Assembly (NCBI GenBank): GCA_019454045.1
Contig: SKCR01035535.1
Location: 124,001-188,000 of the forward strand
Length of the DNA stretch: 64,000 nt
Origin: Zanthoxylum bungeanum
Taxonomy: Eukaryota > Streptophyta > Magnoliopsida > Sapindales > Rutaceae
Direction of reading: 5' to 3'
The stretch's first letter is position 1, and the number at the start of each line of letters is the position of its first letter. Of the stretch, positions 11,570-43,342 are shown piece by piece. The notes under the pieces are model-generated. The model was not told the origin of the DNA and searched no databases. It worked only from the letters and a program-made list of their open reading frames with translations. The translations under genes and the position numbers were made by a program.

Positions 11570-11570
11570 A

Positions 11571-12320: not shown

Positions 12321-12323
12321 CTC

Positions 12324-15891: not shown

Positions 15892-15892
15892 T

Positions 15893-20970: not shown

Positions 20971-23050
20971 TGTTGGAGTTCTACGGTCCCAAGGATTGAA
21001 TCAAAAGCAAGAAAACATGTGCGAATAACAACGACGAAGTTGCAGAATACTTATATCGAGCGGTTGAGCGACGCGAGAGGAAACAAAAATTCTTTTTGCT
21101 CGGCAATGGACTGCTTGGCAGTGATGGTGTGTAGCTCACTGGTTTCGGCCATTTGAGCTCCTTCGTCAAGCTCCAAGCTTCGTCGAACGATTCCCGGCTC
21201 ATGGGTGGACTTCCCTATCACCTTCGCATGACTTCGTAGTGTGCTAGCACTCCCGATTTTGCCACAAAATCGCGACTCTTGCTTCCCATTTCATCCCTGG
21301 TTCACGGCAGTGGACTGCCAAAACAGAAGAGAAATTAGCCCTCTTGGGCGAGAGAGAGAGAGATGAGAGAAGGAGAGAATTGTGTGGTTTGATTCCAAAT
21401 TTGTGTATCTAATACACACATTTGAATTTCAAATTCATTTCATGTGCATTTGGCTTTCAAAAAGTCAAGTAATAATGGCACCAACCACTTCTATCACTCC
21501 ATCAATCCATCAATCAGTGAATAGTGACTTGCGTCAATCACTCAAAGTGAAAGACATCCATCACTTGATTGACAAATGATGTGACGCTAGTTGCGACTAG
21601 CGATTTGACGCTTGATTTGACTTGCATGCCGCACTCGAATTCGAAATGCGAATGCGCTCGCAAATAATCTCGGGCACGGGTTCGCTAATTCCAAATTAAT
21701 GAATTTTCCGTTGCGACGTAATTAAATCTAAATTAATTAAATAATCATGCCTAGCATAATTACTATTCACGTCGCTAACGAATTAATTCTAAATTAATTC
21801 GTTCGCCCGAATTAAAATCTAATTTTAATTCCGCGTCGAAATCCAATTTCGTTTAATATATCGAATATATTAATTCTTCGATTAATTCCAAATTAATCGT
21901 TATCTCTCTTTAAATGATATTTTATCCCAGATAAAATATCTCCGCAATTAATCCCAGATTAATTTTCTCTCTCTTCTAATTAATCCCAGATTAATTAAGA
22001 GTGCGAGTCATACGTCATCGGTGAATCTTTGGGAAGCGACCCATGAGATCCCCGGATATGTTGGTAGTAAATTCGGTTGTCGGACTATTCGAACACGTAA
22101 GTACTAAGTACTACGTTTATACCGATTTACAAGACAATGTTGGCCTCTAGCAAAGCGCCATGCCTACCCAATTCTCCGGAAACATCCTTACAGGAATAAA
22201 GGATCTATATCAGGCGTAGTATACGTAGTATTGCGTATGTCGATCCAGTATCGGATGATCACGTGCTAGGCCTGGGGCTGGAATTGTGTCTGCCCCGTAT
22301 GAAGCACATGTCTGATATCTGGTAACTAGTCTCTATAATCGGATAAACATGACCTAGTCATAATATCCCGATAGCTCGAGCATATAAGAGAACGAGTTCC
22401 GTATCCTATGTGACCATCATCTCCACTATGACTGGAGTGATACTTCCATCTCGACATCACACCCAATACACTACGATTCTCAATATACCCAGCATTGGCG
22501 TACATAGAACCTGTTAAAGTCCTGGACGACCGCAACCAAAGTATATTGATTGTCGCAAGTATTAGCGGTGCAAGTCTCAGGTTAAGACCAAATACACCAA
22601 CCCTGATTTCGGACTTCCATAGACACATAGTCATACTACCAATGGAATTCCGATGGGGTCTATCCAAAGCGAAGCTGTTTCCCGTACCATCGGTAAAACA
22701 CAACCTCCTATTACATTTGCATGAGTATCCTATACCCAAATATATGAGAACTATGATGTTGTGCCCTCACAACACGCACAAGTGTAATACTAGTCTTTTA
22801 CGCATTTATCAATGTCCAATCTCGACAATGTTCTGACTAGGGATATTTAATGATTTATCCTTCGTGGACTGATACTGTCTCATATCATTCTCAGTCCAGG
22901 AACAAATCATAGGGACCTCCTATCATTTATACATCTAGGTGATCTAATCACAAATGATAAGAGTGCAATCTCTTTTGTCACATAGTTAATTTGTACAATA
23001 GTACCATGATCTGTACAAATAATGACGCTATGGGTCATAATTGTCCAAAA
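20971..23050 (-). repeat. 3' LTR of A
   Basis: TGTTGGAGTTCTACGG... to ...TCATAATTGTCCAAAA on the plus strand; the terminal CCAACA is mutated to CCAAAA. It is closely similar to 43343-45404 and to the LTRs of E. It contains the palindrome array (21716-21995). A 99-codon frame (22327-22700, minus) recurs in all family LTRs. Confidence 0.92.
21716..21995 (-). repeat. array of palindromes with three-base loops in the A 3' LTR
   Basis: Equivalent to 8285-8595 in E. Examples: 21779-21801 (two 10-bp arms, loop CTA on the plus strand, TAG in element sense) and 21916-21940 (11-bp arms, loop CCA/TGG). Others are centred near 21817, 21845, 21868, 21889, 21954 and 21982. Loops differ from E (TGG where E has TTG or TAG) while the arms are kept. 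Confidence 0.85.
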
Positions 23051-23556
23051 ATCTCCCACTTGGCCTATAGCCAGTCACTTGAGTGTCTACCACCCGAACT
23101 ATGTACCGATTCGCTCAAACTGCTGAGAAAGGTTTTCGTCAGCGGATTTGCATTATTATCATCTGATGCGATTTATTCGATCATTACATTGCCACGATGT
23201 ATGATCCGAACGAATCAGATGAATATCGAAGTATGTATCTGGATCGTTGATGAGACCATTAATTCTTTCGCCTGTGCTCAAGCCTAGCTCAGCTGCTAAC
23301 AGAATTATATCTAATCTAATTAGATTTATTTATCGACCCAGAAGGCTTCTATTGCCGCCTCAACTGCAGCAATAACCCGCATTTGTTGTTTATTCAGTAA
23401 CAGTATCTTGCTTGGAAGATTTCCAGCTCACTGTTCCGTTATTCAAACTGTATAGTACCGTTTTGTGACTTGTAGTCATCTTTATCGGTTGGGAAACTTG
23501 CAGTAGTGATCCCAGTCACTTCAAGTTCTCCTTCTCCATAGATTAAGATAACATCC
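23051..23556 (-). pseudogene. A: copia RNase H, decayed
   Basis: On the minus strand from 23556: DVILIYGEGELEVTGITTASF then TDKDDYKSQNG, the start of copia RNase H (family pattern LxVTGYSDASFQTDxDDxKSQSG, first catalytic D replaced by T). Further on, VIAAVEAAIEAFWVDK corresponds to AEYIAASEAAKEAVWI. The left end has a PPT-like purine run next to the LTR. Gypsy B separates it from the RT at 38053. Confidence 0.8.
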
Positions 23557-25735
23557 TGACCGGCGTAAACACACACGTATAACGCAAGCGCACATATCGT
23601 TCAAGTAGTATAAAAAAATCGATCCCACGAGGACTTAATATCTAATCTATTAATTTTATGAGGTCAAATGATTACTAGTATCTAACAGGTTGATTGATTG
23701 ATTTGAAATGGTGACGATTCTAAATTTAAGAGCAAGTAAATAAAATTGTCGAAAATAGGTTTTAAAAAAATTCAATATTAAAAACTATCTAGGGTTGTGA
23801 TTTCTTCCAATATCATTTTAAAGATGAAGTGGTTATCTTAAAGTTGGGTAGTATATTGATTTATTAACCTGGAACACTAAATTATGTGTAAGCCTCTGTC
23901 GATGGTCAGACACAAATACCCAGTTTAACCCAATTGAACCATATGTCTATGTCAACCAAATTATCTGGATTCATTAAGTTTAAGTTCTAATTATGGCTAC
24001 CCCCGCCCGACAGGTATATTCCTATCCTGTAAGGAAATCTATTAAAGGGTTATCTATCCTCAAGGAAGATCGTGGGCTATTGAGTCTAAGGCTGAAACCT
24101 AAAATCCCTATGTCTAGTTCATTTTAGATTTACCAGATCAATTTTATTAATGGCCAGTTAATGAAAAAGCATTAAGTTTAAGACTCAATAAATAAATCTT
24201 TATATTACCAAAGCTATAATCTAACCCCTTATAAAACGGTGATATTAAAAGTCATCACAACCCCAGATAACTAATTTAGTTACAACACATAACTAGGGCT
24301 AATAAAAACTTGAAAATAAAATACATAAAGTAAAAATGTGGTAAAGTAAATACTGAAAAGTAAATTACAATAAAATAAAATGCTAAGGTAAAAGGAATTA
24401 CTTTTACTACTACTAATTTAGATATCTCCTATAAAATAATATATAAACTTGTGATTCTTTTTCCAACCAGCCATAAAGGCGGTAACCTGATTAAGTCAAA
24501 TTAAGTCCAACCAGCCTTAAAGGCAGAACCAAAATTAAATTACCAACCGACCAATCTGGCGGTATCCTTGATTAGTCAGGTTTAAACCAGATTAAAATGA
24601 ATTACTAACCGACCAATCTGGCGGTATCCCTTTTAAGTCAATATTTTAAATAGTGAATATATTATTTTTAAGGGAGATTAATCTAAATAGTAACAGTAAA
24701 AGAATTACCTTTCACCCTAGCTGGGGAAGTTACCTCCTCATGGTAAATAGTAAAAACTGTAAAAAGTAAAAAGTAAAAATTAAATTACTATTATTACAAA
24801 ACGTAATTAAAATTAATTACAAAACTAAAAAACTAAAAAAACTAAAAACTAAAAGAAAGTAGAGAGATAAACTCTCTCTTTAGATAGAATATAAGAGAGA
24901 GAGTGATACAATGAATTCTGAAATCTCGAGCTCAATTCATAGGCCTCGGTAGGCTTTCAGCGTCGCGACGCCAGGGCCTTCAGCGTCGCTAAGCAAGATT
25001 TTGTCGACGTGGCACGCTCTGGTTCGTCTGTTTGAAGATTCTGGATAAGCTGATAAGGTGAAACGTAGCAGAGTGGTTGGGCTTCAATTATTGTGACACG
25101 TGGCGGCTTCTGATTGGTCGATGAGATTCTTATTCGCCACGTGTGAGATAAGGATTAGATACTCAATGATTGATGCTGACGTGGCGCTGACGTGGCGGTG
25201 ACGTGGCGACACGTGGGAAAGAGATTGTCGGCACCGTAGGATTGCGACATGTGGCACTTCCTGATTGGCTGATGATGATGTGGCACGACACGTGGCAATG
25301 TTGACTTGTTGACTTCCTGACGTGGCTGATGACATGGAGACACGTAGGTTGCCACGTGGTACACGTGGCGATGATGACTGTCGGCACCGTAGGATGCTGA
25401 CACGTGGCACAGCGTATGTTACCATATCGGCTGTGATGGTGACACGTGGCACGTCGCATTTTAGCAAAGTCAAACTTTTCTCAGATTCTGATTTGTGGAC
25501 CCGGCGCATGTTAGCACTGTTCGACGCATGTTAGACGTCGCGACGCGAGAATTTACTAAAATGCCATTTTTGTCCAATTTTCACTGTTTTGGCCCAAATC
25601 ACCTCCAGAATGTCCTGAAACTTTATTTATCTACAAAATAACACAAAACACATCAAAATATTCACAAAACTCAAGAAACTATACAAAATATTTGGTTAAA
25701 TGAGTGGGAAATAGTGATATAAATACCACTCATCA
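23557..25735 (-). repeat. 3' LTR of B
   Basis: Begins TGACCGGCGTAAAC, ends ACCACTCATCA, and adjoins the PPT at 25736. The TATA-equivalent position (24935-24945) reads CTATGAAT on the minus strand, a mutated form of the CTATAAAT in the 5' LTR. Overlapping frames at 25084-25509 are by-products of repeated GACACGTGGC words. Confidence 0.93.
25005..25455 (-). promoter_or_regulatory. G-box/ABRE cluster in U3 of the B 3' LTR
   Basis: About a dozen ACGTGG cores in 450 bases, most in the form (A/G)CACGTGGC(A/G) or GACGTGGC, with several on the opposite strand (GCCACGTG). They match the core of plant ABRE/G-box sites bound by bZIP and bHLH factors. Two TTGACTT W-box-like words are adjacent at 25302-25316. 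The same cluster occurs at 37305-37745. Confidence 0.75.
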
Positions 25736-25748
25736 CACCCCCAAACCT
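25736..25748 (-). other. polypurine tract of B
   Basis: AGGTTTGGGGGTG on the minus strand directly beside the 3' LTR, the usual gypsy PPT form. Confidence 0.88.
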
Positions 25749-26285
25749 AACATTTTGCTAGTCCTCGAGCAAAACATAAAATAATATAAATAAATTAACT
25801 AAGCCACTTTCGTAGGGATCACTGTTGCATTTAGCGTATGCAACAAGCCTTTAAACCCCTAGGTGTCCCTAGTGGACGAGTTGTAGTCTCGTGAGGGTTT
25901 ACAGCAATGATACCTACAAACATCTTACAAAAGTAAAAAGAAAGTAAAACTAATGCACACAAAAGCAAAAAGACAAGCGAAAATAGAATAAAGAAGTTAG
26001 TGACTAATCAGGTGAAACTTCTACTCCAAGTTAGTAGTTGTTTTGTTTCATTCTAAATTACCGAATAAGTAAATTCTCCGATTATATTTACCATTCTCCA
26101 TATACACAGCCAACATAATATTAAACAACTCATTTTTGCCCACAACAGTCATAAGTGCAGTTAATAAGAGAGTAATATTTTTGTCCTAATGTTTTATCAG
26201 AATTCACACCTTTTTGCAGCAATGGAATAATTTTTCAGATTTTCAGATTTTTTCCTTGATTTTTTTTTTATTTATATACAATACC

Positions 26286-26530
26286 TTCCGTCTATGTAGC
26301 GAGTGTTGGGTCGGTGACTCCCAAACCAGTTGGCTTTAGGGCACCAGGTGTTAAGACACCCCTACGGACTTAATTACTCAGACTTCGGATATATATATTT
26401 TTGCAGCATCTTTGATCCATGTAGCGAGCTTTGGGCCAGTGACTCCCAAACTAGTTGGTTTTAGGGCACTAGGTGTTAAAACACCCTTACAGACTTAATA
26501 ACTCGGATCTCAGATTTTTTTTTTTACTCC
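26286..26530 (-). repeat. 125-bp tandem duplication in the 3' UTR of B
   Basis: Two imperfect copies beginning near 26295 and 26420, each with TGTAGCGAG, GTGACTCCCAAAC, TTAGGGCAC and CAGGTGTTAA-like words. Non-coding. The rest of 25749-27122 is AT-rich with no gene. Confidence 0.8.
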
Positions 26531-26939
26531 ATTGTTTTTTGAGATGCTTCCTCTAATTAAACTAGAGCACTGAATATTACAAACTTTTCAATTTTAGCTC
26601 ATGTCCGTATGTTACTATATATGTTGATAATATCTGTCAACTGAGCATATGAAGATTCCTTTTAGTCCGTTTTAAGGAGAATTCACAAATTAAATAATTC
26701 AAAATGAAATAAACAAAAATTAACTTGTTTCGAAATAGGTTTGAGATACGTCTCAGGAGTGGAAACTCCTTACTCAGCTATCTCTTACCAATTTCACATT
26801 TTTAGTCAAATAAAAACACAAAAACGCAAAATATTTTTGTAATTTTTGAAAAAATTTCAATTTTTTTGTATTTTTCGAAAAATTTTGGACTAAAAGTAAA
26901 ACAACATACAAACTAAAAACAAGGTACTAATCAACTAAT

Positions 26940-26985
26940 TCCCTCCCCCAAACCTAAATGAGACATTGTCCCCAATGTCTTAAAC
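26940..26985 (-). other. second PPT-like motif with hairpin, B
   Basis: The minus strand reads GACATTG-GGGA-CAATGTC (a 7-bp hairpin), then TTTAGGTTTGGGGGAGG. It repeats the AGGTTTGGGGG core of the true PPT at 25736 and may be an internal PPT downstream of the extra genes. Confidence 0.6.
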
Positions 26986-27122
26986 AGTAAAAGGAGAGTT
27001 AAGAAGGTGATACCTGATTAGCTGAAATCTATAGGAAATTAAAGGTTAAGATCCAGATTAATCCGACGCCTCTTACCACGATCGTCCTCAGACCAATTTA
27101 TCTTTGAAAGGATAGGGTCAAC

Positions 27123-27692
27123 TTATGGTTCATAGGCTATGAGTTGGTCTATTAGATCCGGAGCAGTTCTGGCAGTAAAGAGTAGTTCTTTCAAAGGTTT
27201 TGACACGAACCCATTTCTCCGAGCATCATCAAGAAACACACAAATAAAATCATAAAATCCATCAACGTTGAGCAGTCCAAGCGGTTTCTGGTGTATGTGC
27301 AGGTTCGCCCAAGATAATACTATAAAAATTTCCTCTAATGTACCCAAGCCACCTGGCAAAGCGATAAAAGCATCATTACGATTAATCATTTCTACCAGTC
27401 GTTCAGACATACCTGGCATGATCAGTTCCTCTCCGTTTGATGATCCAATAAGATTTGCCTCTGCCAAGGGTTTTGGGATGATTCCCAAAACGTTACTGCC
27501 TCCTTCCTGTACAGCCTTTGAAACGATCCCCATAAGTCCGAGATTGCCTCCGCCATATATTAGGTGTATATTTCTTGCAGCTAAGACTCGACCCAATTCA
27601 TGTGCTGCTTCTACGTATTGTGGCTTAGTTCCAACACTACTACCGCAAAACACACAGATGTTTTCAACTCGTCTTCTTGAAGTGGCTTCCAT
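27123..27692 (-). CDS. LOG: LOG-type cytokinin riboside 5'-monophosphate phosphoribohydrolase, carried by gypsy B
   Basis: A 189-residue intact, intronless protein of the LOG family (lysine decarboxylase-like Rossmann fold). These cytosolic enzymes remove ribose 5-phosphate from cytokinin nucleotides to release active cytokinin. Visible motifs: ICVFCGSS at 12-19, nucleotide-loop YGGGNLGLMG at 46-55, VLGIIPK at 68-74, catalytic R98 in MSERLVEM, and PGGLGTLEE at 113-121, the family signature PGGxGTxxE. R98 and the motif glutamates are kept. It ends at YEP, somewhat short of the roughly 210 residues usual for plant LOG, lacking only the variable tail. ATG context is AAAAAATGG. Plant LOG genes normally have several introns, so this looks like a processed copy. 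It lies between the integrase remnant and the PPT of B in element sense. Whether it is expressed is not shown by sequence. Canonical LOGs have PGGYGTLEE; L in place of Y suggests a divergent subgroup. Confidence 0.92.
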   Translation of the reverse strand: MEATSRRRVENICVFCGSSVGTKPQYVEAAHELGRVLAARNIHLIYGGGNLGLMGIVSKAVQEGGSNVLGIIPKPLAEANLIGSSNGEELIMPGMSERLVEMINRNDAFIALPGGLGTLEEIFIVLSWANLHIHQKPLGLLNVDGFYDFICVFLDDARRNGFVSKPLKELLFTARTAPDLIDQLIAYEP

Positions 27693-27746
27693 TTTTTATG
27701 TATTTCTTTCTCAAATCTAGATGCCTTCAAATGTGCAATGACGGGC

Positions 27747-27760
27747 TGAATTTATAGTAC
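27747..27760 (-). promoter_or_regulatory. possible TATA box upstream of LOG
   Basis: GTACTATAAATTCA on the minus strand, about 55-65 bases before the ATG. A start site 25-30 bases downstream would give a short 5' UTR. It could be chance in AT-rich DNA; no other promoter element is evident. Confidence 0.4.
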
Positions 27761-27950
27761 CTGAAAAGGGTGAGTAAAAATAGCACAAGTATCTTCCAGA
27801 GGACGATTAGTAGCGAAATAATATCGTGATAGACAAAAAGGTCTGGATCCTGTCGGAGAAAATAAAAGAAAACAACAAAACAAATCACAATTATTAAGAA
27901 AAGACAAAGAGATATAATATTTACAAGAAAAGTAACGGCTTGATTGACGT

Positions 27951-28499
27951 CTATGCGTCAGGGACAAGCTTCCCATCTAATTTTCTTATAAACTGGCAAA
28001 CAGGGTCTTTTTGAGTCAGATTCTCGAGACTTAACAGTTGTCTTTCCTTTTGGAATTGTGCATATAACATGCGAATTTCATGATACACACATCCACTGGG
28101 ATGCGTCTCAAGAGTTTTAGATATGTCATCCAAAGACTCCTTACTCAAGCCATCCCTAATGAAGTTAATCTTATCTTCGCGGTTATCGGACACCATTCCT
28201 AAAAAATGACAACGAGTATTACAAAATATGCGAGCACCTTTATAACAAACACACATCCTTTTGGCTCTTCTCTTTTTAGCATATGTGCTCTTTCCTAAGC
28301 CAGGCAGATGTGAAATAAAAGAGTCAGAAAACTCACCTGCCAATCGAACCCGTGCTTCAATTAACCAACGAATGTCAGTAGGAATACCTTTGTTCATCAG
28401 TAGTCTCATCTGTTCTAAGCGAGCTTTGTAAACTTTCATCAGAGATTTTTGAGGGAGAGAAGGAAATTGCTTGTGAAGATTTGCGAGAGCATCTTCCAT
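27951..28499 (-). CDS. 182-residue protein of unknown function in gypsy B (basic, Cys-rich centre)
   Basis: Intact frame from ATG at 28499; an in-frame extension to 28547 lacks an ATG of better context. I do not recognise a named domain. Residues 1-70 look helical (MEDALANLHKQF...). Residues 75-81 are KKRRAKR, a nuclear-signal-like run. C83, C85, C93, C97 and H98 form a CxCx7Cx3CH cluster that could bind zinc. The C-terminus is KLDGKLVPDA. There is no signal peptide or membrane segment, so it is not an envelope-type protein. It sits between the integrase C-terminus (90-140 bases upstream) and LOG (258 bases downstream), where Athila-type elements carry an extra ORF. It may be an element-specific accessory protein. 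Confidence 0.7.
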   Translation of the reverse strand: MEDALANLHKQFPSLPQKSLMKVYKARLEQMRLLMNKGIPTDIRWLIEARVRLAGEFSDSFISHLPGLGKSTYAKKRRAKRMCVCYKGARIFCNTRCHFLGMVSDNREDKINFIRDGLSKESLDDISKTLETHPSGCVYHEIRMLYAQFQKERQLLSLENLTQKDPVCQFIRKLDGKLVPDA

Positions 28500-28516
28500 C
28501 TTGAAATGACTAAACC

Positions 28517-28526
28517 TGCAAAAATT
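28517..28526 (-). promoter_or_regulatory. candidate 3' splice site before the 182-residue frame
   Basis: ATTTTTGCAG/G on the minus strand, 18 bases upstream of the ATG, matches the plant acceptor consensus. A spliced subgenomic RNA is one way LTR elements express a gene downstream of pol. No donor was established. Confidence 0.45.
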
Positions 28527-28637
28527 AAACACACAAAAATAAAACACACCAAATCACAATATATACACAAATTGCATTGGTTGCCTCCCTGCCAGCGTTA
28601 AGTTTAAAGTCGTCAGCCAGACTTGACTTCTCGAATG

Positions 28638-29026
28638 TTAAGCTGGATCTGAAAGTGTAACACTTTCTTTTTGTCGCTCAAATGATTCTCCCCAGTAGTG
28701 CTTGACACGCTTTTTTTTAACCTTGAAGGTTTTGTTAGCGTCAGGATCATGTATCTCAACAGCTCTATTTGGTAAAACTTTGGTGATCACAAATGGACCT
28801 GACCACCGTGATTTTGGCTTCCATGGGAAGAATTTCACCCTTGATTTGTTTAACAGTACCTTCTGTCCTGGTTCAGTTGTATGCGCACTAACTTTTCATC
28901 ATGTCTTTTCTTGCCCTTTTCTTTGTACAATTTGGCATCCTCAAAAGGCTGATTGTGAAATTCCTCCAATTCGTTGAGCTGGTGGAACTTTTTCTCTTCT
29001 GTTGCTTGTAGTGCAAGAATTGGCTC
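28638..29026 (-). pseudogene. B: integrase C-terminal part
   Basis: On the minus strand: KFHQLNELEEFHNQPFEDAK then LYKEKGKKRHD (gypsy integrase tail), a frameshift near 28850, then KFFPWKPKSRWSGPFVITKV, the GPF/GPY-type module, ending with a stop at 28638. The integrase zinc finger and DDE core are absent. The upstream junction is interrupted by solo LTR C; the target duplication CTTCA lies within it. Confidence 0.85.
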
Positions 29027-29031
29027 CTTCA

Positions 29032-30845
29032 TGTTGGTTTTAATCTAGGTCCCAAGATCATACAAGCCATGAAAACATGCGTGAATACACCAACGAAGAT
29101 AGCGGAATACTTACATCGGTCGGTTGAGTCGATTTGGAGACGAATGAAGCCCAAAAACTCACTGCCAAGGACGCCCAAGCTGTGCAGTCCATTGCCTCCA
29201 ATTTTCAGAATTTTGAGATGACAAACGGAGCTCCAAGCCTCGTCCGATGGATCCCGGCTCATGGGTGAACCTCCCCACCACCTTCGCAAGACTCGTAAGT
29301 GTGCTAGCACTTGATTTCTCACCATGAAAAACCACTCTTGCTTCCCCTTAGTGTCACGCCATTTCTGGTTCAAAACCAGTGAAGAAAATGGCTGTTATTG
29401 GCGTGAGAGAGTGAGAGAGAATTGAGAGAGATGAAAGATGTGTATTATATAAAATGTGTAAAGACTTTTACTTATATATTTTCCAAAAATATATAACAAT
29501 TACCATTTATTTTTCTTTTCAAAAAATCAAAATAAAAAGATAATAAAGTCTCCCACCAAACTACATCAACTATTCACATCAACTTTAAGTCATATCAACC
29601 TTAATAAAGTGACATGTCTTTCAATCAATCAATCACATCAATCAATCACATCACTCAAAATGACAAGTGATTTGATGCTTGATGCGACTGATTGATTTGA
29701 CGCTTGATGCGACTTGCGTTGCCGCACTCGAATTCGAAATACGAATGCGCTCGCAATCACACTCGGGCTCGGGTTCGCTAATTCTAAATTAACGATTTTT
29801 CCGTCGCGTCGTAATTTTGATTATCGGGAAGCGACCCATGAGATCCCCGGATAAGTTGGCAGTAAATATGGTCGTCGGAGTATCCGAATCACGTACGTAC
29901 CAAGTACTACGTTCTACCGATTTACGAGATAAGGTCGACTCCTAGCAAAGCACCAAGTCTTCCCAATTCTCCGGACATATCCATCTAAGAATATTTAAGA
30001 TCTATATCAAGCGTAGTATACCAAGTATTGTGTATATCGGTCCAGTATCGGATAGTCACGTGCTAGGCCTGGGGCTGGATAAGTGTCTGCCCCGTACGAA
30101 GCACATGTCGGATGTCTGGTAACTAGTCTCTATAATCGGATATACATGACCTAGTCATAATATCCCGATGGCCGCGCAGCACTTGAGAGCACTAATACCG
30201 TATCCTGCGTGACATCATCTCCACTATGACTGGAGTGATACTTCCGTCTTGACATCACACCCAATGCTCTACGATTCTCAATATACCCAGTATTGGCGTA
30301 CACAGAACCGGTTAGAGTCCTAGACGACCTCAACCAAAGTATATTGATTGTCGTAAGCATTAGCGATGCAAGTCTCAGGTTAAGACCAAACACACCTACC
30401 CTGATGTCGGACTCCCATAGACACATAGTCATAATACCAATGGGATTCCGAGGGGTCTATCCAGAGCGAAGCTATTTCCCGTACCATCGGTGAAACACAA
30501 CCTCCTATCGCACTTGCATAAGTATCCAATACTTATATATATGAGAACTATGCCGTTGTGCCCTCACAACGCGCACAAGTGCAATACTAGCCTATTCCGC
30601 ATTATCGATGTCCAGTCTCGATAATACTCCGGCTAGGGATATTTAATGATTAATCCTTCGTGGACTGATACTGTCTCATATCATTCTCAATCCAGGAACT
30701 AATCATAGGGACCTCTCTTCATTTATATATCTAAGGTGATCTAATCACAAATGATGAGAGTGCAATTTCCTTGTCACATAGTTAATTTGTACAACAACAC
30801 TATGATCTGTACAAATAGTGACGCTATGGGTCATATTATCCAACA
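29032..30845 (-). repeat. solo LTR C (copia family A) in gypsy B, TSD CTTCA
   Basis: TGTTGGTTTTAATC... to ...TATTATCCAACA, flanked by CTTCA at 29027-29031 and 30846-30850. It is the same family as the LTRs of A and E, in minus orientation, and has no internal region: the product of LTR-LTR recombination. It is 1814 bp against about 2070 because the palindrome array is missing: at 29818 it passes from GTCGTAATTTT to ATCGGGAAGCGACCC. Confidence 0.93.
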
Positions 30846-30850
30846 CTTCA

Positions 30851-32203
30851 GTACAAAAGACGCTTTATCTTTAGGCTCTACAGGCAATTGACATGTTTTA
30901 AGTTTGTCAGTAGAACTTTGTATTGCATTGGAGTTCTGAATGGTACTGTGTAACACATCGAGTTTAAAACATTCCTCCTTCTTTTCATCATCTGGGAAAT
31001 TCATGGCCTTGAAAACATTGAATGTTACTTCTTGGTCCTGTACCCTCATGGTTAATTCTCCTTTTTGTACATCAATAATGGTTCGACCTGTAGCCAAGAA
31101 TGGTCTCCTAAGGATGATTGGCACGTCTGCGTCTTCCTCCATATCAAGGACAATAAAATCTGCTGTGAAAATGAATTTGTCAACCTTGACCAGCACATCC
31201 TCAACTACGCCTCTTGGAAATACGACCGTTCTATCAGCAAGTTACAGTGAGACTGAAGTTGGCATTGTTTCTCCAATCTATAATTTCCTGAAAATAGAAA
31301 AAGGCATCAAGTTAACACTCGCACCTAAATCACACAAAGCCTTACCAAAGTTATGTTCTCCTATGACGCAAGGAACAGTGAAACTGCCAGGATCTTTCAA
31401 CTTCGGGGGAAGTTTCCTCTGAATGATGGCACTGCATTCTTCTGTTAATGCTACTGTCTCGTAATCTCCCAATCTCCATTTTCGTGAAAGAATATCTTTC
31501 ATGAATTTGGCATAGGTGGGCATTTGTTCCAACGCTTCTGCAAATGGAATGTTGATATGCAGCTTTTTGAAGATTTCCAGGAACCGAGAAAACTTCTTGT
31601 CCAATTTGTTCTTCTGAAGACGTTGAGGAAAAGGCGGAGGTGGAATGATCTGTTCTTTTTCCTTTACTTCTTTTTCCTCCATCTGTTGCTTTGTTTCTTT
31701 TGGAATTTCCTCAGCAGTTGTTTTGGCTCCAACATCTTTATTGATTTCAGTATCGCTTTTTAACGTGATGGCATGACATTGCTCCTTCCCCATGTTCCTT
31801 GGATTTGGCTCTGTGTTGCTAGGAAGGGTACCTGGCGGTCTGTAACTCTGAGCATTTGCCAGTTGTCCCATTTGATTCTCCAGTGCTTTAATAGAAGCAG
31901 ATTGACTTTGAATTAATGCTGCTTGGGATTGAAACATAGCGTCATATCTTGCTGTTTGAGAGTCATGTTTTGCTTCTATCTTTTTCAAGTGGGTCAACAC
32001 TTCTGTTATTCCTGGTTCATTTGCTTGCTCCTGGCTTTTGTTCTGTTGCTGGAATTGAGGTGGTGGATAGTTCTGCTGTTGGCCTGAATTGTTGCTCCAT
32101 GAAAAATTAGGATGATTCCTCCACCTTGGGTTGTAGGTGTTGGAATATGGATTGTTCCCTTGTCTGTTGAAATTGTTGATAAAATTCACCGTTTCTTCAA
32201 GTT
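30851..32203 (-). pseudogene. B: Gag C-terminus and aspartic protease
   Basis: From 32203 down the minus strand: Gag tail with SNTYNPRWRNHPNFSW (typical Athila/Tat Gag), a Q-rich stretch, a coiled-coil-like segment (ALENQMGQLANAQ), an acidic/Lys-rich linker, then retropepsin with the catalytic DLGAS in LCDLGASVNLMP. Two in-frame stops (TAG, TAA) fall between 31278 and 31200. The frame then continues with FIVLDMEEDADVPIILRRPF and GELTMRVQDQEV, and ends at the CTTCA insertion site. RT should follow but does not. Confidence 0.88.
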
Positions 32204-32208
32204 GGTTC

Positions 32209-34822
32209 TGTTGGGGTTGGTGCTCAGAGCGCCAATCCGGGCCGTATTTATGTCTGATTCATGAATACGAACATCCCCTTATTCCATAATATTACTTATT
32301 TATGGTTGCACCTCTTGTTCTTATATACGTATTCGATCTGATTACGATTAGATTGAAACTAAATGTGGTTTGGTGATATGTATATATTAGACAAAGGCCC
32401 GATAATATATAATGCAGTACACAGTTACAAAGTTAGTTTGTAATTGACATTGGGAAGTGTCACTGCTATATGAATATTATCAAACATAGTTCCTGGTCAA
32501 GATTTGCTAACACGGGTCGGTTAGTCAAATCCGTTTAGACCAGTACATGTTGTATATCGAGACTTGGTCCGATGGTTTATCCCAATGAACCATGAGTCTA
32601 GGGAGACTCGTATAGACGTGTAGGTGTTTATAATGGATAAACACTGAACAGCTTACCGAAGATTCTTAATGGATGGTACACCAACGTCAATAAGAATCTT
32701 CTCGGGTTGAGTAGCATAGTGGTCCTTCGACTTGAGACACCACTGTGGATGTATGAGACATCCTCCATACTTAGATGGCAGTCACGTCACCGATCTATTT
32801 AGATCAGACCTCCGCCTGTTCGTTGGGTGTGGATCGATCCTCAGGATATCCTGTGTGTGTCAAGATAGGATCCGTCAGTTCTGTGTACCGAGCATAGGTA
32901 GTCCATATATAATTAGCAGTCTGTTAAATCTGTGGCCACAGTATACTTCAGAAGTAAGTTCCGATTGTTATTTAGAGATTGTTAATGAATACGTCGACGG
33001 GATAATACCTATAGAGATTTGACGTTTACATCTATATCTCTGGGATTATCCGGATACCTGTGACGGAGAGATTATACGTATGCAATGACCTCGACCTGTA
33101 TGATTCAGCTAGTTTATCCGTGATCGTCATAATCTACGGGTGGATAGATTATGGACACGAAATTGGATTTCGTGACGGATATACCTGAATCTAGAGAGTC
33201 TCAATAATGAAACATACTCGTAGAGCACTAGAGCAACATTTATGAATAATGATGATTATTTATAAATCGTTTAAACGTTAAACGAAAAATACATGCGAAC
33301 GGGCCGAACCGTCATTTCCTAATTAATGTGTATTTGTATTTAATATATGATATTATTAAATACACATCAATAAATATTCAAATAAAGGTATTTGACATAT
33401 ATCATTAATATATGTATTTGAGATATTTAAGGTAAATATAATACATATATTTGATATATTTGTATTTAATTAATTATTTAATTGTTAAATGATTAATATA
33501 ATTAAAATATAAATATATCACCAAATGATAAAGTTAGGAAATGATTATAAGTTGCAATTGTTGACTTATACATTAAAGGAAAAGGTTGTCAAATTGATTT
33601 TGACTTCTTAAGATATTTGTTCAAAATTGTTTGAAAATGAAAATATCTTTTTCCTTTATTTTTCATTAAATTCGGCCATAACACTTAAATATAAGAGTTA
33701 TATTTTTCTTAGTTGCATTTTTTGACTTAATTAAATATCTAATAAAGTGTTATTTGGATATTTATGCAAGTTGACCAAATGTAAAGTGAAATGAAATTGA
33801 AATTGCAAAAACTTGTATTTGGCTAGGTAATTTCGCCCAAGACCATTTTGATACAAATATATATTGTTTTTCATTTCATTCTTCTTAACCTAATACACTT
33901 TAAAGAAAACTCCATTAAAGGAAGCAAAGGATGCTAGAGAGAAAAGAAAGTAAAATCAAGAAAAGCTTGGAAAATAGTAAGTATTTCCAACCTTCCATTA
34001 GAGAGTAATTTGTTCCTCTTGTTGTGGGAAACATCTTGTGATGTTCTTGAGTTTTTCTATTCTTTATTCTTTGTGTTTTTGATGGATAAAATTTTGGTGA
34101 AAGTGTAGAGCATGTATGATGAAGGAAGCTTATGGCTATTGTAGTAATAAGTGTTCTTTTGTGGTTTTGGAAACCTTGTTGCTAATCTAGAGTTGTTGAC
34201 CCACTCTTAAATGACCTAGATTTGATCTTGAGTTGTTTCATTGTGTTGAGACTTTGATTGGATGGAAGAAAGATGATTGAAGTGTTGGATTTAACCAATT
34301 TGGTCTAATTTGTCCAATTTGATGAAATTGAAAAATTAGGGTTCATGACCAATTCCAAATTTGGGGATTTTCATATATGTTGTGTATTTGTGTGTGTATA
34401 TGATGCATATAAAGTTTCATGTTGATTGAATTACATCTTGATGTGTTTTGAAGCATGAAATGACAAAGTGCACAAATGGCACACTTTGGAGGTGCATTCG
34501 GCCTTGATGAAGAAAATGGGATTTTTGGTGCTTTTGGTGTTTTGATGTTTTGAACATGCTAAGTTCATCTTAGAAATGATTTAGAATCATTCAAAATTGA
34601 TTAGATCATTTTCGGACTAAAATGGACAAAATACCAATATAAGGGTAATTTGGTAAATTCACTTAAATATGATTTATTTGAATTTTATTTCATAATTTGA
34701 TTATTGGATAATTAAATAAATATGTTTATTTAATTAATCCGAGAAAAAGTTTTGAAATCGGAAAATTTGATTTTCCACCGCTTCCGCTGCGTTACCGGAT
34801 TTAGCCCCTAAAAAACCCTACA
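32209..34822 (+). repeat. solo LTR D (H family) in the gag of gypsy B, TSD GGTTC
   Basis: TGTTGGGGTTGGTGCTC... to ...AAAAACCCTACA, 2614 bp, flanked by GGTTC at 32204-32208 and 34823-34827. It is related to the LTR at 47370-49763 and to the copy at the left edge. Plus orientation, no internal part. Open frames inside, including one at 32732-33022 that starts at TTG, are judged non-coding. Confidence 0.93.
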
Positions 34823-34827
34823 GGTTC

Positions 34828-35744
34828 GAATCTGGTGCTCCTCCATATGGTGAACTTGTGGATCCAGTGGTAAGAGTCTCCATAAATTTGCATATCTAAT
34901 CTAGCTTTGCGTTGACTGCTGTATTGGCTCCACTTTCATAAATTCCTGCAAATCTTTGAATCATGCTCCTTTCTGTTGGCCACAAAGAATTGTTGTTGGC
35001 CATTTCTTCGATTAGGTCCCAGGCTTGATCTTCTCCTTTTGCCATCAAGGCTTCTCCAGTAGCAGCTTCGATTGTGGTTCTCATTATTCCAGAAAGCCCA
35101 TTATAGAATGTTTGGACTTGAATCCATTTTAGAATCTCATGGTGAGGACATTTCCGGAGCAAATCTTTATACATTTCCCAAGCTTCGCAGAGGGATTCTG
35201 AATCTTGTTGTACAAAGGATGTGATGTCATTCCTCAGCTTTCCGGTTCTGGCTGGTGGAAAGTACTTTGCAAGAAATTTGGTGGCTAAAGTGTTCCAAGT
35301 TGTGATAGAACCTGCTGGTAGTGAATGTAGCCAAGCTTTAGCTCTGTCTTTCAGGGAATATGGAAAAACTCGCAGTCTCATTGCTTCTTCCGCTTCTCAG
35401 TTGTAATTAAAAGTGCCACAAACTTCTAGGAAGTTGCTGATGTGGGCATTAGGATCTTCAGTTGAATTCCCCCCGAACTGAACTGACTGCTGAATCATCT
35501 GAATGCATGTTTTGATGTCACACACATTTGCTGGTAACGGAGGAAGTACAATACAGAAAATGAGTCTGTCAACCACCGGAATGGTTTTGTCTCGAATGGG
35601 AATTGGTTGTGCAACGTTCAAAGGTTCAGGTTTCATGTTGACTAAAGCTTCTTGGCCCTCTCGCCTTTCCCTTCTCAACTGTCTGATGGTTCTTTCAATT
35701 TCCGGGTCAAGCGGTCGGAGTTCAAAGCTTCTAGTTCGTCTCAT
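34828..35744 (-). pseudogene. B: Gag, N-terminal and retrotrans_gag domain
   Basis: ATG at 35744 (MRRTRSFELRPLDPEIER). One in-frame TGA at about 35396 separates it from the retrotrans_gag domain: LRVFPYSLKDRAKAWLHSLP, then KFLAKYFPPARTGKLRNDI, then KCPHHEILKWIQVQTFYNGL. A TAG at about 34896 follows. Sequence and order match Athila-type Gag. Apart from those stops the frame is well kept. It is interrupted by solo LTR D and continues at 32203. Confidence 0.88.
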
Positions 35745-35855
35745 GAAGTTTCTGAGAACCTGAAACACAAGAAAATAAAAAAAAAAAATAAGTAAAAAGA
35801 AATTAGATACAAGTAACGTATCTAACCCCTAAACTAATAGTAAAAGATAAATAAG

Positions 35856-35873
35856 TCCCCGGCAACGGTGCCA
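35856..35873 (-). other. PBS of B (Athila type)
   Basis: TGGCACCGTTGCCGGGGA on the minus strand, six bases from the 5' LTR. It differs by one base from the TGGCGCCGTTGCCGGGGA PBS of Athila elements (tRNA-Asp type). Confidence 0.9.
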
Positions 35874-37234
35874 AAAACTTGACCGGCGTAAACACACACG
35901 TATAACGCAAGCGCACATATCGTTCAAGTAGTATAAAAATATCGATCCCACGAGGACTTAATATCTAGTCTATTAATTTTATGAGGTCAAATGATTACTA
36001 GTATCTAACAGGTTGATTGATTGATTTGAAATGGTGACGATTCTAAATTTAAAAGCAAGTAAATAAAATTGTCGAAAATAGGTTTTAAGAAAATTCAATA
36101 TTAAAAACTATCTAGGGTTGTGATTTCTTCCAATATCATTTTAAAGATGAAGTGGTTATCTTAAAGTTGGGTAATATATTGATTTATTAACCTGGAACAC
36201 TAAATTATGTGTAAGCCTCTGTCGATGGTCAGACAAAAATACCCAGTTTAACCCAATTAAACCATATGTCTATGTCAACCAAATTATATGGATTCATTAT
36301 GTTTAAGTTCCAATTATGGCTACCCCCGCCCGACAGGTATATTCCTATCCTGTAAGGAAATCTATTAAAGGGTTATCTATCCTCAAGGAAGATCGTGGGC
36401 TATTGAGTCTAAGGCTGAAACCTAAAATCCCTATGTCTAGTTCATTTTAGATTTACCATATCAATTTTATTAATGGCCAGTTAATGAAAAAGCATTAAGT
36501 TTAAGACTCAATAAATAAATCTTTATATTACCCAAGCTATAATCTAACCCCTTATAAAACGGTGATATTAAAAGTTATCACAACCCCAGATAACTAATTT
36601 AGTTACAACACATAACTAGGGCTAATAAAAACTTGAAAATAAAAGACATAAACTAAAAATACTGTAAAGTAAATTACAATAAAATAAAATGCTAAGGTAA
36701 AAGGAATTACTTTTACTACTACTAATTTAGATATCTCCCATAAAATAATATATAAACTTGTGATTCTTTTTCCAACCAGCCATAAAGGCGGTAACCTGAT
36801 TAAGTCCAATTAAGTCCAACCAGCCATAAAGGCGGAACCAAAATTAAATTACCAACCGACCAATCTGGCGGTATCCTTGATTAGTCAGGTTTAAACCAGA
36901 TTAAAATGAATTACCAACCGACCAATCTGGCGGTATCCTTTTTAAGTCAATATTTTAAATAGTGAATATATTATTTTTAAGGGAGATTAATCTAAATAGT
37001 AACAGTAAAAGAATTACCTTTCACCCTAGCTGGGGAAGATACCTCCTCATGGTAAATAGTAAAAACTGTAAAAAGTAAAAAGTAAAAATTAAATTACTAT
37101 TATTACAAAACGTAATTAAAATTAATTACAAAACTAAAAAACTAAAAATTAAAAGAAAGTAGAGAGAGAAACTATCTCTTTAGATAGAATATAATAGAGA
37201 GAGTGATACAATGAATTCTGAAATCTCGAGCTCA

Positions 37235-37242
37235 ATTTATAG
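37235..37242 (-). promoter_or_regulatory. TATA box of B 5' LTR
   Basis: CTATAAAT on the minus strand, followed by a CTCTCT-rich region (37150-37205). It lies about 70 bases downstream, in element sense, of the nearest ACGTGGC motif. Confidence 0.65.
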
Positions 37243-37304
37243 GCCTTGGTAGGCTTTCAGCCTCGCGACGCCAGGGCCTTCAGCGTCGCTACGCCAGATT
37301 TTGT

Positions 37305-37745
37305 CGACGTGGCACGCTCTGGTTCGTCTGTTTGAAGATTCTGGATAAGCTGATAAGGTGACACGTGGCAGAGTGGTTGGGCTTCAATTATTGTGACACG
37401 TGGCGGCTTCTGATTGGTCGATGAGATTCTTATCCGCCACGTGTCAGATAAGGATTAGATACTCAATGATTGATGCTGACGTGGTGGTGACGTGGCGACA
37501 CGTGGGAAAGAGACTGTCGGCACCGTAGGATTGCGACACGTGGCACTTCCTAATTGGCTGATGATGATGTGGCACGACACGTGGCAATGTTGACTTGTTG
37601 ACTTCCTGACGTGGCTGATGACATGGAGACACGTAGGTTGCCACGTGGCACACGTGGCGATGATGACTGTCGGCACCGTAGGATGCTGACACGTGGATCG
37701 GCGCATGTTAGTAGATCGGCTGTGATGGTGACACGTGGCACGATG
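37305..37745 (-). promoter_or_regulatory. G-box/ABRE cluster in U3 of the B 5' LTR
   Basis: About a dozen ACGTGG cores, mostly ACACGTGGC(A/G), in 440 bases ending about 70 bases upstream of the TATA box. This spacing fits an enhancer driving the element transcript. Conserved with 25005-25455. Confidence 0.75.
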
Positions 37746-38052
37746 CATTTTAGCAAAGTCAAACTTTTCTCAGATTCTGATTTGTGGACCCGGCGCACGT
37801 TAGCACTGTTCGGCGCATGTTAGACGTCGCGACGCGGAAGGTTTTGGCGTCGCGATGCGGGAATTTACTAAAATGCCCTTTTTGTCCAATTTTCACTGTT
37901 TTGGCCCAAATCACCTCCAGAATGTCCTGAAACTTTATTTATCTACAAAATAACACAAAACACATCAAAATATTCACAAAACTCAAGAAACTATACAAAA
38001 TATTTGGTTAAATGAGTGGGAAATAGTGATATAAATACCACTCATCACATCC

Positions 38053-39005
38053 TTTGTTCTCTAAGACACTAACGGATGTTCTTAACATCAATCCAGTGAC
38101 TATCACTTGGATTGGCCTGTTTGTGAATCCATATGCTCAAAGCGTATGAGACACCAGGTCACGTACATTTCTCAATGTACGAGTTCACGGAGAGTTTCAT
38201 GAAAGCCAAGCTTTCACCGATTGTTTTATGGGAATATCATTTCCAAGAAATGACATATTATCATTATTTATAGGACAGCCACTGTCAGTGTGCTCCCACT
38301 AACCCTCTTTATATACACAAGAATCATGTTTGTTTTTAATTAAATCATAAACTATTATGATTACACCAAAAAGATAATTCCTAGAACCTATGCTTGCTTC
38401 AATCCAAACATAGATCGAACAACCTGCAAACCTTGTTTGCTAGTTTTGGTACGACAAAACCAACAGGATGTTGTAAACATCCTCCAAAAGTTTTCCTTTT
38501 CAGGAAATCGATTTTCCCGTTCAGCTGACATATTTCATAAATGAAACATGCAGCATTAGCAAGCATTATCCAAATGGATTTATCGTGGCAACAGGTAAAA
38601 GGTTCAATTGTAATCAACACAATGTTGATAACGATACCTTTCCGCTAAAAGCCTAGCTTTACACGTTGGTATGTTGCCTTCCATGTATGTATTCCTTGAA
38701 GACTGAATAGTACCAATAGGCACAATGCCTTATGGTAAATCAACTAGTATCTAAACTTGTTGATATACATGGAATCCATTTGGGATTATATGGCACTTTG
38801 CCATAATTAGGGAGTCGATACCTTGTATCACTTCCTCATACGTAGTCAGTTGATATACCTCAATAAGATTGACATCTTTATGAGGTGAGATCAGAAACCC
38901 ATACCCCAGGTTGTTTTCTGACTCTCTCCGACATATGCGGTTCTTATGTATACGAAGATTAATGGTAATAGTTTCATCCTTGATGAAATATTTGTGTTCC
39001 ATTAG
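38053..39005 (-). pseudogene. A: copia reverse transcriptase, decayed
   Basis: Minus-strand pieces in order: LVDLP.GIVPIG near 38740 (TLVDLPEGIKPIG), KSIWIMLANAACFIYEICQL near 38570 (KSIRILLAIAAYYDYEIWQMDVKTAFLNG, altered after the aspartate), a C-terminal LFDLCLD.S where YGLKQAS is expected near 38400, then NPSDSHWIDVKNI near 38090. The polymerase core is broken by many stops and a short N-terminal remnant precedes it (to 39005). It is cut by gypsy B at 38052. Confidence 0.75.
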
Positions 39006-40320
39006 GATTCGGTGCCTTGAACAGTATTACTCTGATTTTCATCGAGTTTTACTATCCTCTCACTTACCACTGTATATCGGTATTCCTCTTAGGAAAACCG
39101 AATGGTGAGCAACAATCTAATTGTTCTCTTGTGAGTTGTATAAGTACAATACTTATGGTATCCCTAGGATAACCTACATTTGGCACTTATCCAATTTGGG
39201 TTTTAGTTTGGTATCATCCAAACATATGCCTAGCATATCCAAATGTTTTAGGAATGAGAAACCCGGTTTCTTTCCCGTTCATATCTAATATGAAATCTGT
39301 CAAACAGATTATTATAGAACCTTATTCAAAATAAGTTCTTGCACTGTTTAAAGCTTATCCGTTGAAGGAAATGGTATCTCAGAGCGACTCATGATTAACC
39401 TTATCATGTCTAACATAATTCGGTTTATCCGTTCGGACACACCGTCAAATTGACGTGTTCCAGGAGGAGTCCTCATTGAAAGAATACTATACTCTTTCAA
39501 GTATATTAGAAACTTATTGCTTAAGTATTTTTCATTACGGTCTTACCGTGACGGTTTAATACTTTAGCCGATCTGTTTGTCTATTTCGTGTCGAAACTAT
39601 AAAAGTTTCCGATTTGTGTTCTAAAAGAAACACACAACCATAACGCGATGCCACATCCGTAAAGGTCACGAAATATTCATATCCACCTCTAGCCTTGCTA
39701 GACATGGGCCCACTTGCTTCACTATGAACTAGGGCTAACAGATTAGTGGCATTTACACTTTTACCAAGTAAATGTGTTTTAGGCACTTTGCCCAATAAAC
39801 TAGATTCGTAGACTTTATTTGATTGGAATCAAAATAGTCTGAGTACCCACTCTTCAAAAGTGTGGATATACGATTCTTGTTTGATTGTGTCCCAGACAAC
39901 AATGCCACAATTAAGTTTCATCTAATCAAATCAGTTTGAGCTATTGTTTGTCATGTTATACGTTTGAGATGTTATTTATATTCAAAATATAAATTCTGTT
40001 ATTCATATCTAATGTGTTTATCTCAATATCATCTTTATATAATAAAACACCTTAGTGTTCTAGAATATAAAGGTTCACCCGCAGTGAGTTAAACACTGAT
40101 ATAAAGATAATGTATCTAGTCAAACTAGTTACATTATAACAGTTTCCAATTTTAGGTACACACCCGAAGGGTAGTTCCTAAAATTAGGTATCTAAGGTTA
40201 AAATAGCGACTTTCGTCCCGTTTCCAATTCACAGATAAATCTCAACTGAAGTCAGTATCCTGCTCACAGCAGATTCTGAACAACATCATATATTTATGTA
40301 TAACACTAAGTATCTAAAAT
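39006..40320 (-). pseudogene. A: copia protease and integrase, decayed
   Basis: From 40320 down: ILDT..C protease-like start, decayed HHCC region near 39910 (CGIVVWDTIK), then GKVPKTHLLGKSVNATNLLA and SEASGPMSSKARGGYEYFVT with TDVASRYG (integrase core, D position occupied by S-E-A-S). Near 39190 VWMIP.NPNWISAKCRLSRGY corresponds to the integrase C-terminus. Many stops. The same order and wording occur in E at 6640-7639. Confidence 0.78.
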
Positions 40321-43325: not shown

Positions 43326-43341
43326 CCTTGCTCTAATACCA
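43326..43341 (-). other. PBS of A
   Basis: TGGTATTAGAGCAAGG on the minus strand beside the 5' LTR, one change from TGGTATCAGAGC (tRNA-iMet). Confidence 0.88.
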
Positions 43342-43342
43342 T

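What the first reader, a model, noticed from the sequence alone, without database searches (positions are those of the whole stretch)
27123..27692. Intact LOG cytokinin-activating gene carried inside an Athila-like retrotransposon
A full-length intronless LOG frame with the PGGxGTxxE signature, R98 and GGGNLGLMG lies between the integrase remnant and the PPT of an element with two LTRs, PBS, PPT and a perfect TSD. Known: LOG frees active cytokinin from its nucleotide, and plant LOG genes normally have introns. Inference: this is a captured processed copy, moved as cargo. The gag and protease of the same element carry stops, yet this frame has none.
Basis: partly seen in the sequence, partly recalled or inferred. 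Interest (0 to 1): 0.9.

Follow-up and report, generated by a model that had tools for sequence, protein, structure and literature searches.

The report
Plant jumping gene carrying hormone activator
A common plant retrotransposon carries a gene of the type that activates the growth hormone cytokinin, beside a gene resembling one of plant RNA viruses; its copies show that selection has conserved the hormone gene's protein, although the copy found here is decaying.

Summary
The LOG frame is real, on the minus strand (27692-27123), in an LTR element (38047-23557) with a perfect 5-bp TSD. It is not full-length: close relatives have 217 residues, this copy stops after 189. Retrotransposon-borne LOG is already in print, so the kind is known.

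New here: an ORF beside it (28499-27951) matches Pfam Viral_NABP, a family of plant flexiviruses. In the host assembly (3.96 Gb) the LOG family is large: 150 scored hits, window included, all at 93% identity or more. Of 29 sister copies picked by non-coding DNA, 27 have LOG at least in part and 24 in full span. Only 6 of 24 keep the 217-codon frame, yet dN/dS is 0.32 against 0.72 in neutral simulation. Against a second lineage it is about 0.10. The one host LOG examined has introns, so an RNA-derived capture fits. Copies without NABP show the same constraint. Of 95 full-length homologs, 79 end in an LxLxL-type tail that this copy has lost.

Best reading: an old captured cytokinin-activating gene, maintained because it helps the element; this copy is non-autonomous and decaying. 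Enzyme activity, expression and benefit are untested.

The parts
23557..38047 (-). Athila-like LTR retrotransposon B, minus strand, flanked by TSD GGATG (38048-38052 and 23552-23556)
   Evidence: TG...CA ends and identical 5-bp flanks; LTR pair
35880..38047 (-). 5' LTR of B
   Evidence: 94.9% identical to the 3' LTR over 2200 columns, 56 mismatches, 57 gap columns
23557..25735 (-). 3' LTR of B
   Evidence: as above
35856..35873 (-). primer-binding-site-like sequence TGGCACCGTTGCCGGGGA, 6 bases after the 5' LTR (that this is the Athila type is recalled, not tested)
   Evidence: sequence read
34896..35768 (-). gag remnants (two ORFs), one with Retrotrans_gag
   Evidence: Pfam PF03732 81 bits on 34896-35381
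32209..34831 (-). stretch with repeats similar to 47586-49763, taken as a foreign insertion in B
   Evidence: self-blastn
30846..32189 (-). gag end and protease-like region (motif recalled; no Pfam match), with stops; ends at the pol deletion junction
   Evidence: ORFs, no Pfam family, three-frame reading; the same junction in sister locus L005
29032..30845 (-). solo LTR related to the outer element's LTRs, inserted with TSD TGAAG at the pol deletion junction
28637..29031 (-). integrase C-terminal remnant; RT, RNase H and integrase core not found between the protease-like region and here
   Evidence: 46% identical to the integrase end of L001
27951..28499 (-). NABP-like ORF, 182 aa, open, but with Gly at family Cys88
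   Evidence: Viral_NABP 25.7 bits, cut-off 23; 56 of 63 aligned members, this one included, match; Cys88 in 58 of 63
27123..27692 (-). LOG frame, 189 aa, ends at codon 190 (close relatives 217 aa)
27042..27125 (-). in-frame remainder of the LOG gene (basic and LxLxL tail), the stop at codon 190 and what follows
   Evidence: tblastn 1-217; tail statistics of homologs
25736..25750 (-). polypurine tract TTAGGTTTGGGGGTG
   Evidence: sequence read
20971..45404 (-). outer LTR element A into which B inserted (TSD GGGCC on the + strand)

Best explanation
The window holds a decayed, non-autonomous copy of an abundant Athila-like Ty3/gypsy retrotransposon family whose 3' accessory region, in the position of env, carries two cargo genes: a virus-type NABP gene and a cytokinin-activating LOG gene. 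LOG was captured long ago, most likely from a spliced host LOG transcript. Selection on the elements has kept it as a protein-coding gene, also among copies that lack NABP. Most likely the element RNA is spliced to express NABP and LOG, and LOG releases active cytokinin in cells where the element is transcribed; that would favour cell division and so element expression or germline entry. Shown: structure, copy family, linkage, constraint on the family, absence of introns. Inferred: splicing, enzyme activity, benefit to the element. This copy is decaying: LOG is cut by 28 residues, NABP has lost a family cysteine, and most of pol is gone.
For: LTRs, TSD, PBS- and PPT-like sequences. LOG family membership. 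Own-genome search: 66,875 first-look candidates, 150 scored (window included), identity 93-100%, 4 of 150 with a stop inside. Sample picked by 3' non-coding DNA: LOG at least in part in 27 of 29 sister copies, full span in 24, open 217-codon frame in 6 of 24. dN/dS 0.318 over all pairs (bootstrap 0.28-0.36) against neutral simulations with mean 0.72 (0.65-0.85, 40 runs). Copies without NABP 0.335 (0.25-0.41, n=9), with NABP 0.309 (0.27-0.35, n=15). Against a second lineage (LOG 74-76% identical to homolog P0002): 0.09-0.10 for LOG and 0.19-0.23 for NABP. Order NABP-LOG in 6 of 6 second-lineage loci, integrase matched upstream in 5 of 6 (L065 and L066 are 99.4% identical). Host LOG with introns, one locus. 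R98 and E121 in 24 of 24. The pol deletion junction is shared by one sister examined, L005/L063; another, L062, has gag, RNase H, integrase and NABP domains.
Against: No expression, enzyme or phenotype data. 18 of 24 full-span sister LOGs are broken; the open six include the near-identical pair L042/L043. Stops on terminal branches (11 changes against 208 missense) look unopposed, and terminal and internal branches give similar ratios (0.32 and 0.29). R98 is Gln in 6 of 71 aligned LOGs, which speaks against enzyme activity there. Cytokinin made by one copy would help all copies in the cell, so constraint in copies reduced to LOG is hard to explain by a trans-acting hormone alone. No RT domain was reported in the ORFs of L062, so a complete LOG-bearing element is not shown. 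A LOG-less relative exists (L001), and the match of its flank on the NABP side of the LOG site is no better than shuffles (69, shuffles up to 73).
Confidence: 0.7

Rival explanations
1. LOG is a passive passenger: once captured, it is copied with the element but does nothing.
For: This copy and 18 of 24 full-span sister copies are broken; the open frame here is expected by chance (0.33 stops expected).
Against: dN/dS 0.318 among sister copies against 0.72 in neutral simulation and about 0.10 against the second lineage; R98 and E121 in 24 of 24.
Confidence: 0.08
2. The LOG protein is kept for a non-enzymatic role: the fold plus a basic, LxLxL (EAR-like, name recalled) tail acts in the nucleus, for example by recruiting a co-repressor or binding element nucleoprotein.
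For: Of 95 full-length homologs among the 120 listed, 93 have a basic cluster and 79 an LxLxL-type end; the tail marks one clade (99/93), 50 of 55 homologs in it; R98 is lost in 6 of 71. A cis-acting role would explain constraint in copies reduced to LOG.
Against: Catalytic E121 in 71 of 71 and R98 in 65 of 71. Among 24 sister copies the tail is no better conserved than the core: aa difference 0.111 against 0.105, although its DNA differs less (0.060 against 0.074). The window's copy lacks the tail.
Confidence: 0.15
3. The reading of the first stage: a processed LOG captured by this copy, still intact and under selection here.
For: No introns; LOG between integrase remnant and PPT.
Against: LOG is at the same place, at least in part, in 27 of 29 sister copies and in a second lineage; this copy is truncated.
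Confidence: 0.02
4. The NABP likeness is convergence of a small basic zinc-finger protein, not kinship with flexivirus NABPs.
For: The window match is weak (25.7 bits, cut-off 23); both AlphaFold models are poor (pLDDT 66 and 70) and no BFVD match has E below 0.3.
Against: 56 of 63 aligned members match Viral_NABP and 55 of 63 Carla_C4, best E 1.1e-8 and 3.7e-8. The six best of 32 BFVD matches are flexivirus NABPs or silencing suppressors, as are four of the best six of 42 for the second model, the other two being unnamed.
Confidence: 0.2

Closest known systems
LTR retrotransposons with LOG/YgdH domains in Citrus and Populus (PMC9289625, section 12 read; Steinbauerova et al. 2011, recalled, as Athila-like elements)
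   Same: LOG-type domain inside plant Ty3/gypsy elements; perhaps the same family (not compared).
   Different: The passage reports domain occurrence only. Here: NABP partner, copy sample, constraint, pol-deleted and NABP-less forms, tail motif.
Plant LONELY GUY phosphoribohydrolases (LOG3 At2g37210, LOG8 At5g11950)
   Same: Fold family, PGGxGTxxE, R98, E121.
   Different: No introns; K99 replaced by L, I or M in 60 of 71 aligned; basic LxLxL-type tail; own clade outside LOG3/LOG8.
Viral_NABP / Carla_C4 cysteine-rich proteins of carla-, viti- and related viruses
   Same: Profile matches above cut-off for Viral_NABP; basic KKRRAK stretch followed by clustered cysteines.
   Different: 182 aa with a conserved C-terminal half; borne by an LTR element; cysteine spacing differs from what I recall for carlaviruses.
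Orchid Gypsy elements with an AlkB RNA demethylase (PMC9289625: abstract, introduction, section 12 and passages read)
   Same: Enzyme gene of host type acquired and kept by a Gypsy lineage.
   Different: RNA-modifying enzyme in 25-kb elements, tested in vitro there; here a hormone-activating enzyme, untested.
Athila env-like 3' ORFs (PMC7264820, part 1 of 3 read; PMC6317226, passages)
   Same: Sense accessory ORFs between pol and the 3' LTR.
   Different: No envelope-like or Athila ORF-1 domain found here. PMC6317226 predicted only extra ORFs of at least 250 codons, so ORFs of 182 and 217 codons fell below its limit.

Membership tests
Athila lineage (Ty3/gypsy) | RT/RH/IN phylogeny within Athila | tested here: inconclusive
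   RT not found in this copy; sister L062 has RNase H and integrase domains, 59.5% identical to L001; no reference tree was built
Athila lineage (Ty3/gypsy) | LTRs, 5-bp TSD, PBS, PPT, gag before pol | tested here: met
   that the PBS is of the Athila type is recalled
Athila lineage (Ty3/gypsy) | Athila ORF-1 3' ORF (in 16% of Athila elements by PMC6317226, so not required) | tested here: not met
   the 3' ORFs match only LOG-type and Viral_NABP/Carla_C4 families
LOG phosphoribohydrolase | family match with PGGxGTxxE, R98, E121 | tested here: met
LOG phosphoribohydrolase | complete length of its clade (217 aa) | tested here: not met
   stop at codon 190; LOG3 and LOG8 align with all of residues 4-189
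LOG phosphoribohydrolase | releases cytokinin from its nucleotide | not testable with these tools
   needs an enzyme assay
Viral_NABP (PF05515) | profile match above the curated cut-off | tested here: met
   25.7 bits against 23; 56 of 63 aligned members match at E up to 0.001
Viral_NABP (PF05515) | clustered zinc-finger cysteines | tested here: not met
   this copy has Gly at position 88 where 58 of 63 have Cys; the family as a whole keeps the cysteines
Viral_NABP (PF05515) | same fold as viral NABPs | tested here: inconclusive
   poor models; best BFVD matches are NABPs but E is 0.34 or more
Viral_NABP (PF05515) | nucleic acid binding, silencing suppression | not testable with these tools
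   needs bench assays

The most novel reading that the evidence does not exclude
A retrotransposon lineage runs a two-gene host-manipulation module. A NABP kin to RNA-virus silencing suppressors damps host silencing, and a LOG enzyme, sent to the nucleus by a basic LxLxL tail, raises cytokinin locally so that the element is expressed in dividing, germline-forming cells. Constraint on LOG even in copies reduced to LOG would mean that the success of a non-autonomous element depends on its hormone gene.
Probability: 0.2. Interest if true: 0.9.

Novelty: new variant of a known kind. Interest (0 to 1): 0.62.

Why it matters
Extra ORFs in plant retrotransposons are frequent, and most have no known function (PMC6317226, passages; PMC7264820, part 1). 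Here one is a recognisable hormone-activating enzyme with a measured signal of constraint, in at least 150 scored copies, beside a virus-type gene. That makes the question 'do transposons manipulate plant hormones?' directly testable. If NABP is a silencing suppressor, it would join the few known transposon anti-silencing proteins (recalled). It also warns that genes annotated 'LOG-like', such as Populus LOGL10, which falls in the same clade as this one, may be transposon genes.

Tried and rejected
Viral contigs: three scans (NABP, LOG, NABP alignment) gave no relative, so no virus record carrying either gene was found there at that sensitivity. Genome contigs (GTDB): one plant-like contig, L001, in a bacterial bin.

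Selection measured on copies picked by LOG similarity (dN/dS 0.086) was set aside as biased; only the sample picked by non-coding DNA is used for the claim. NABP in the 14 sister copies of that first set gives 0.37, with no neutral run of its own. Splice acceptors before NABP and LOG look plausible, but the two AG sites taken rank only 38th and 40th of 824 by pyrimidine content (an AG just upstream of the LOG one scores higher), so splicing stays an inference. Equal contig lengths in the two homolog lists (8723 and 4511) were a first hint of linkage, replaced by the direct loci. A LOG search of L001's bin found nothing, and without a positive control there it says nothing. Own-genome NABP searches did not complete.

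Papers: ten searches. For NABP in retrotransposons, searches showed none that I recognised from the listings or the passages read; subscription papers are mostly not held, and the DOI I recalled for Steinbauerova 2011 was not. PMC13317346 has no hit for cytokinin, LOG, Athila, viral or lonely. PMC3136472, PMC4535378, PMC7145672, PMC11728184 and PMC11963269: passages only.

Full report
What is there. The LOG frame is at 27692-27123 on the minus strand, 189 codons. It matches Pfam Lysine_decarbox (118 bits) and Arabidopsis LOG3 (198 bits). It lies in element B, 38047-23557, with LTRs 94.9% identical, TSD GGATG, a PBS-like sequence and a PPT. B is nested in an outer element A (TSD GGGCC on the + strand), and itself carries another repeat (32209-34831) and a solo LTR (30845-29032, TSD TGAAG). 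LTR divergence is 56 of 2143 ungapped columns, i.e. 2.6%; with a rate of 1.3e-8 per site and year (recalled) that is about one million years.

The element is defective. The gag region has Retrotrans_gag but is broken, and a protease-like stretch (by motif, recalled; no Pfam match) is followed, but for the solo LTR, directly by the integrase end; RT, RNase H and the integrase core were not found. Sister locus L005/L063 has the same junction without the solo LTR, so the deletion is older than this copy: a non-autonomous form was multiplied. It was seen in this one sister; the others were not examined for it. Another sister, L062, has gag, RNase H, integrase and NABP domains in separate open stretches, with no RT domain reported, upstream of the LOG of L025. 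No copy was judged for activity.

The gene is not intact. Close homologs are 217 aa; homology runs in frame past the stop to 27042. Three sister copies (L037, L038, L055) have a stop at the same codon, but they do not group with the window in the LOG tree, so shared inheritance is not shown. The missing end is notable. Of the 120 listed homologs (of 7,822 with E up to 0.001), 95 pass as full-length (length 205-260, Trp or Cys near the end); 93 have a basic cluster there and 79 an LxLxL-type end (I, M, F and a final R or P allowed; 71 strictly). In a tree of 68 rows (63 of the 70 homologs in alignment A3, 7 long or truncated ones left out; the window; two plant and two bacterial LOGs), the window LOG sits in a clade (99/93) in which 50 of 55 homologs bear such an end, beside a group of 8 without it (94/68). 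'EAR motif' is a recalled name; function is not shown.

The neighbour. The ORF at 28499-27951 is the surprise. Of 63 aligned members, the window's included and taken from 120 listed homologs, 56 match Viral_NABP and 55 Carla_C4 (best E 1.1e-8 and 3.7e-8). Of 463 candidates 355 have E up to 0.001; those of the 120 listed that bear an organism name are plants (Xanthoceras, Populus, Acer, Rhamnella). Structure models are weak (pLDDT 66 and 70), and BFVD matches are not significant, though NABPs or silencing suppressors of plant flexiviruses lead both lists. Whether virus gave to element or element to virus is open. This copy has lost a near-invariant cysteine. Window against L001 NABP: dN/dS 0.233 with dS 0.99.

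A LOG-less relative. L001 (3330 bases, in a bacterial bin of GTDB but plant-like) has RNase H, integrase and NABP, then a 3' stretch that matches the window behind LOG (score 71 against shuffles with mean 27, maximum 51), but no LOG. Between NABP and the LOG site the match is not above shuffles (69; mean 48, maximum 73), though both read TTTTCAGGTA there. So LOG joined, or was lost from, an element that had NABP.

The family in the host. The window lies in an assembly of 3,956,113,105 bases. A LOG search gave 66,875 first-look candidates; 150 were scored, the window among them, all at 93-100% identity, 4 with a stop inside. Of 30 loci fetched (window included), 15 have NABP upstream, 14 do not and 1 cannot be judged (contig end). 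In 11 of the 14, sequence just before the NABP site still matches, and in the two that I read (L003, L014) a scrap resembling NABP remains. In one such copy (L064) about 1.9 kb lie between the 5' LTR and LOG, with no integrase or NABP match on that strand. Five of 14 sister NABPs are open. A second lineage (six loci fetched, LOG 74-76% identical to homolog P0002; two loci nearly identical) has NABP and LOG in the same order in 6 of 6, with integrase matched upstream in 5 of 6.

Selection. To avoid picking copies by LOG, I searched with 1191 bases of 3' non-coding DNA: 6570 first-look candidates, 40 scored, 30 fetched. Of the 29 besides the window, LOG was not found in 2, is partial in 3 and full-span in 24; 6 of 24 are open over 217 codons. 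L037/L038 and L042/L043 are near-identical pairs, so copies are not all independent. All-pair dN/dS is 0.318 (pS 0.1435, pN 0.0490), bootstrap over loci 0.28-0.36. Neutral simulation with the mutation spectrum of the same copies' non-coding DNA (CpG apart, other methylation contexts not) gives 0.72 (0.65-0.85; 40 runs). Copies without NABP: 0.335 (0.25-0.41, n=9; 3 open); with NABP: 0.309 (0.27-0.35, n=15; 3 open). Terminal and internal branches: 0.32 and 0.29. Against the second lineage: 0.09-0.10 with dS 1.5-1.9, where saturation makes the figure rough. R98 and E121: 24 of 24; LxLxL-type tail: 22 of 24. For this copy alone, 0.33 stops are expected in 189 codons since insertion, so its open frame proves nothing.

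Origin. The pattern for MHQRKAEM, a stretch of canonical LOGs, occurs 25 times in the assembly (control 0). The one fetched (L071) shows LOG exons separated by non-coding stretches, so the intronless cargo fits reverse transcription of a spliced message. One locus is not a survey, and an origin from a naturally intronless host LOG is not excluded.

Known and new. A LOG-type domain (called YgdH) in LTR retrotransposons of two Citrus species and Populus trichocarpa is in print (PMC9289625, section 12), which cites Steinbauerova 2011; that that paper places LOG-like ORFs in Athila-like elements is recalled. I found no report of the NABP partner, of constraint, or of LOG-only derivatives in the searches; most subscription papers are not covered.

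Mechanism. Most likely a maintained hormone-activating gene that raises local cytokinin for the element's benefit. Shown: linkage, copy number, constraint, catalytic residues. Inferred: splicing, activity, benefit. Constraint in copies reduced to LOG is unexplained and is the best reason to consider a cis-acting or non-enzymatic role.

Noticed in passing
   Followed up: yes
L065-L070: Second LOG+NABP element lineage in the same genome, with matching integrase upstream in five of six loci; LOG about 75% identical to homolog P0002.
   Followed up: yes
homologs P0010, P0012, P0014, P0015: Transposon-type LOGs with Gln at R98 (6 of 71 in alignment A3), so perhaps no longer enzymes.
   Followed up: no
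L001 (DAIEQH010000041.1, 3330 bases): A plant-like Athila fragment filed in a bacterial bin (Candidatus Nomurabacteria): probable contamination in a public genome.
   Followed up: partly
window 11132-16329: Copia element, minus strand, LTRs 97.5% identical, with an open 766-aa gag-integrase frame.
   Followed up: no
window 55027-56048 and 62086-62956: Tandem arrays (44 and 83 bases; 29 bases) that create long spurious ORFs.
   Followed up: no
window 26291-26515: Two copies of a 100-base repeat (84% identical) between LOG and the 3' LTR, also seen in many sister loci.
   Followed up: no
window 26975-26935: A second PPT-like stretch (TTTAGGTTTGGGGGAGGG) just after LOG; L001 has a similar one.
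   Followed up: partly
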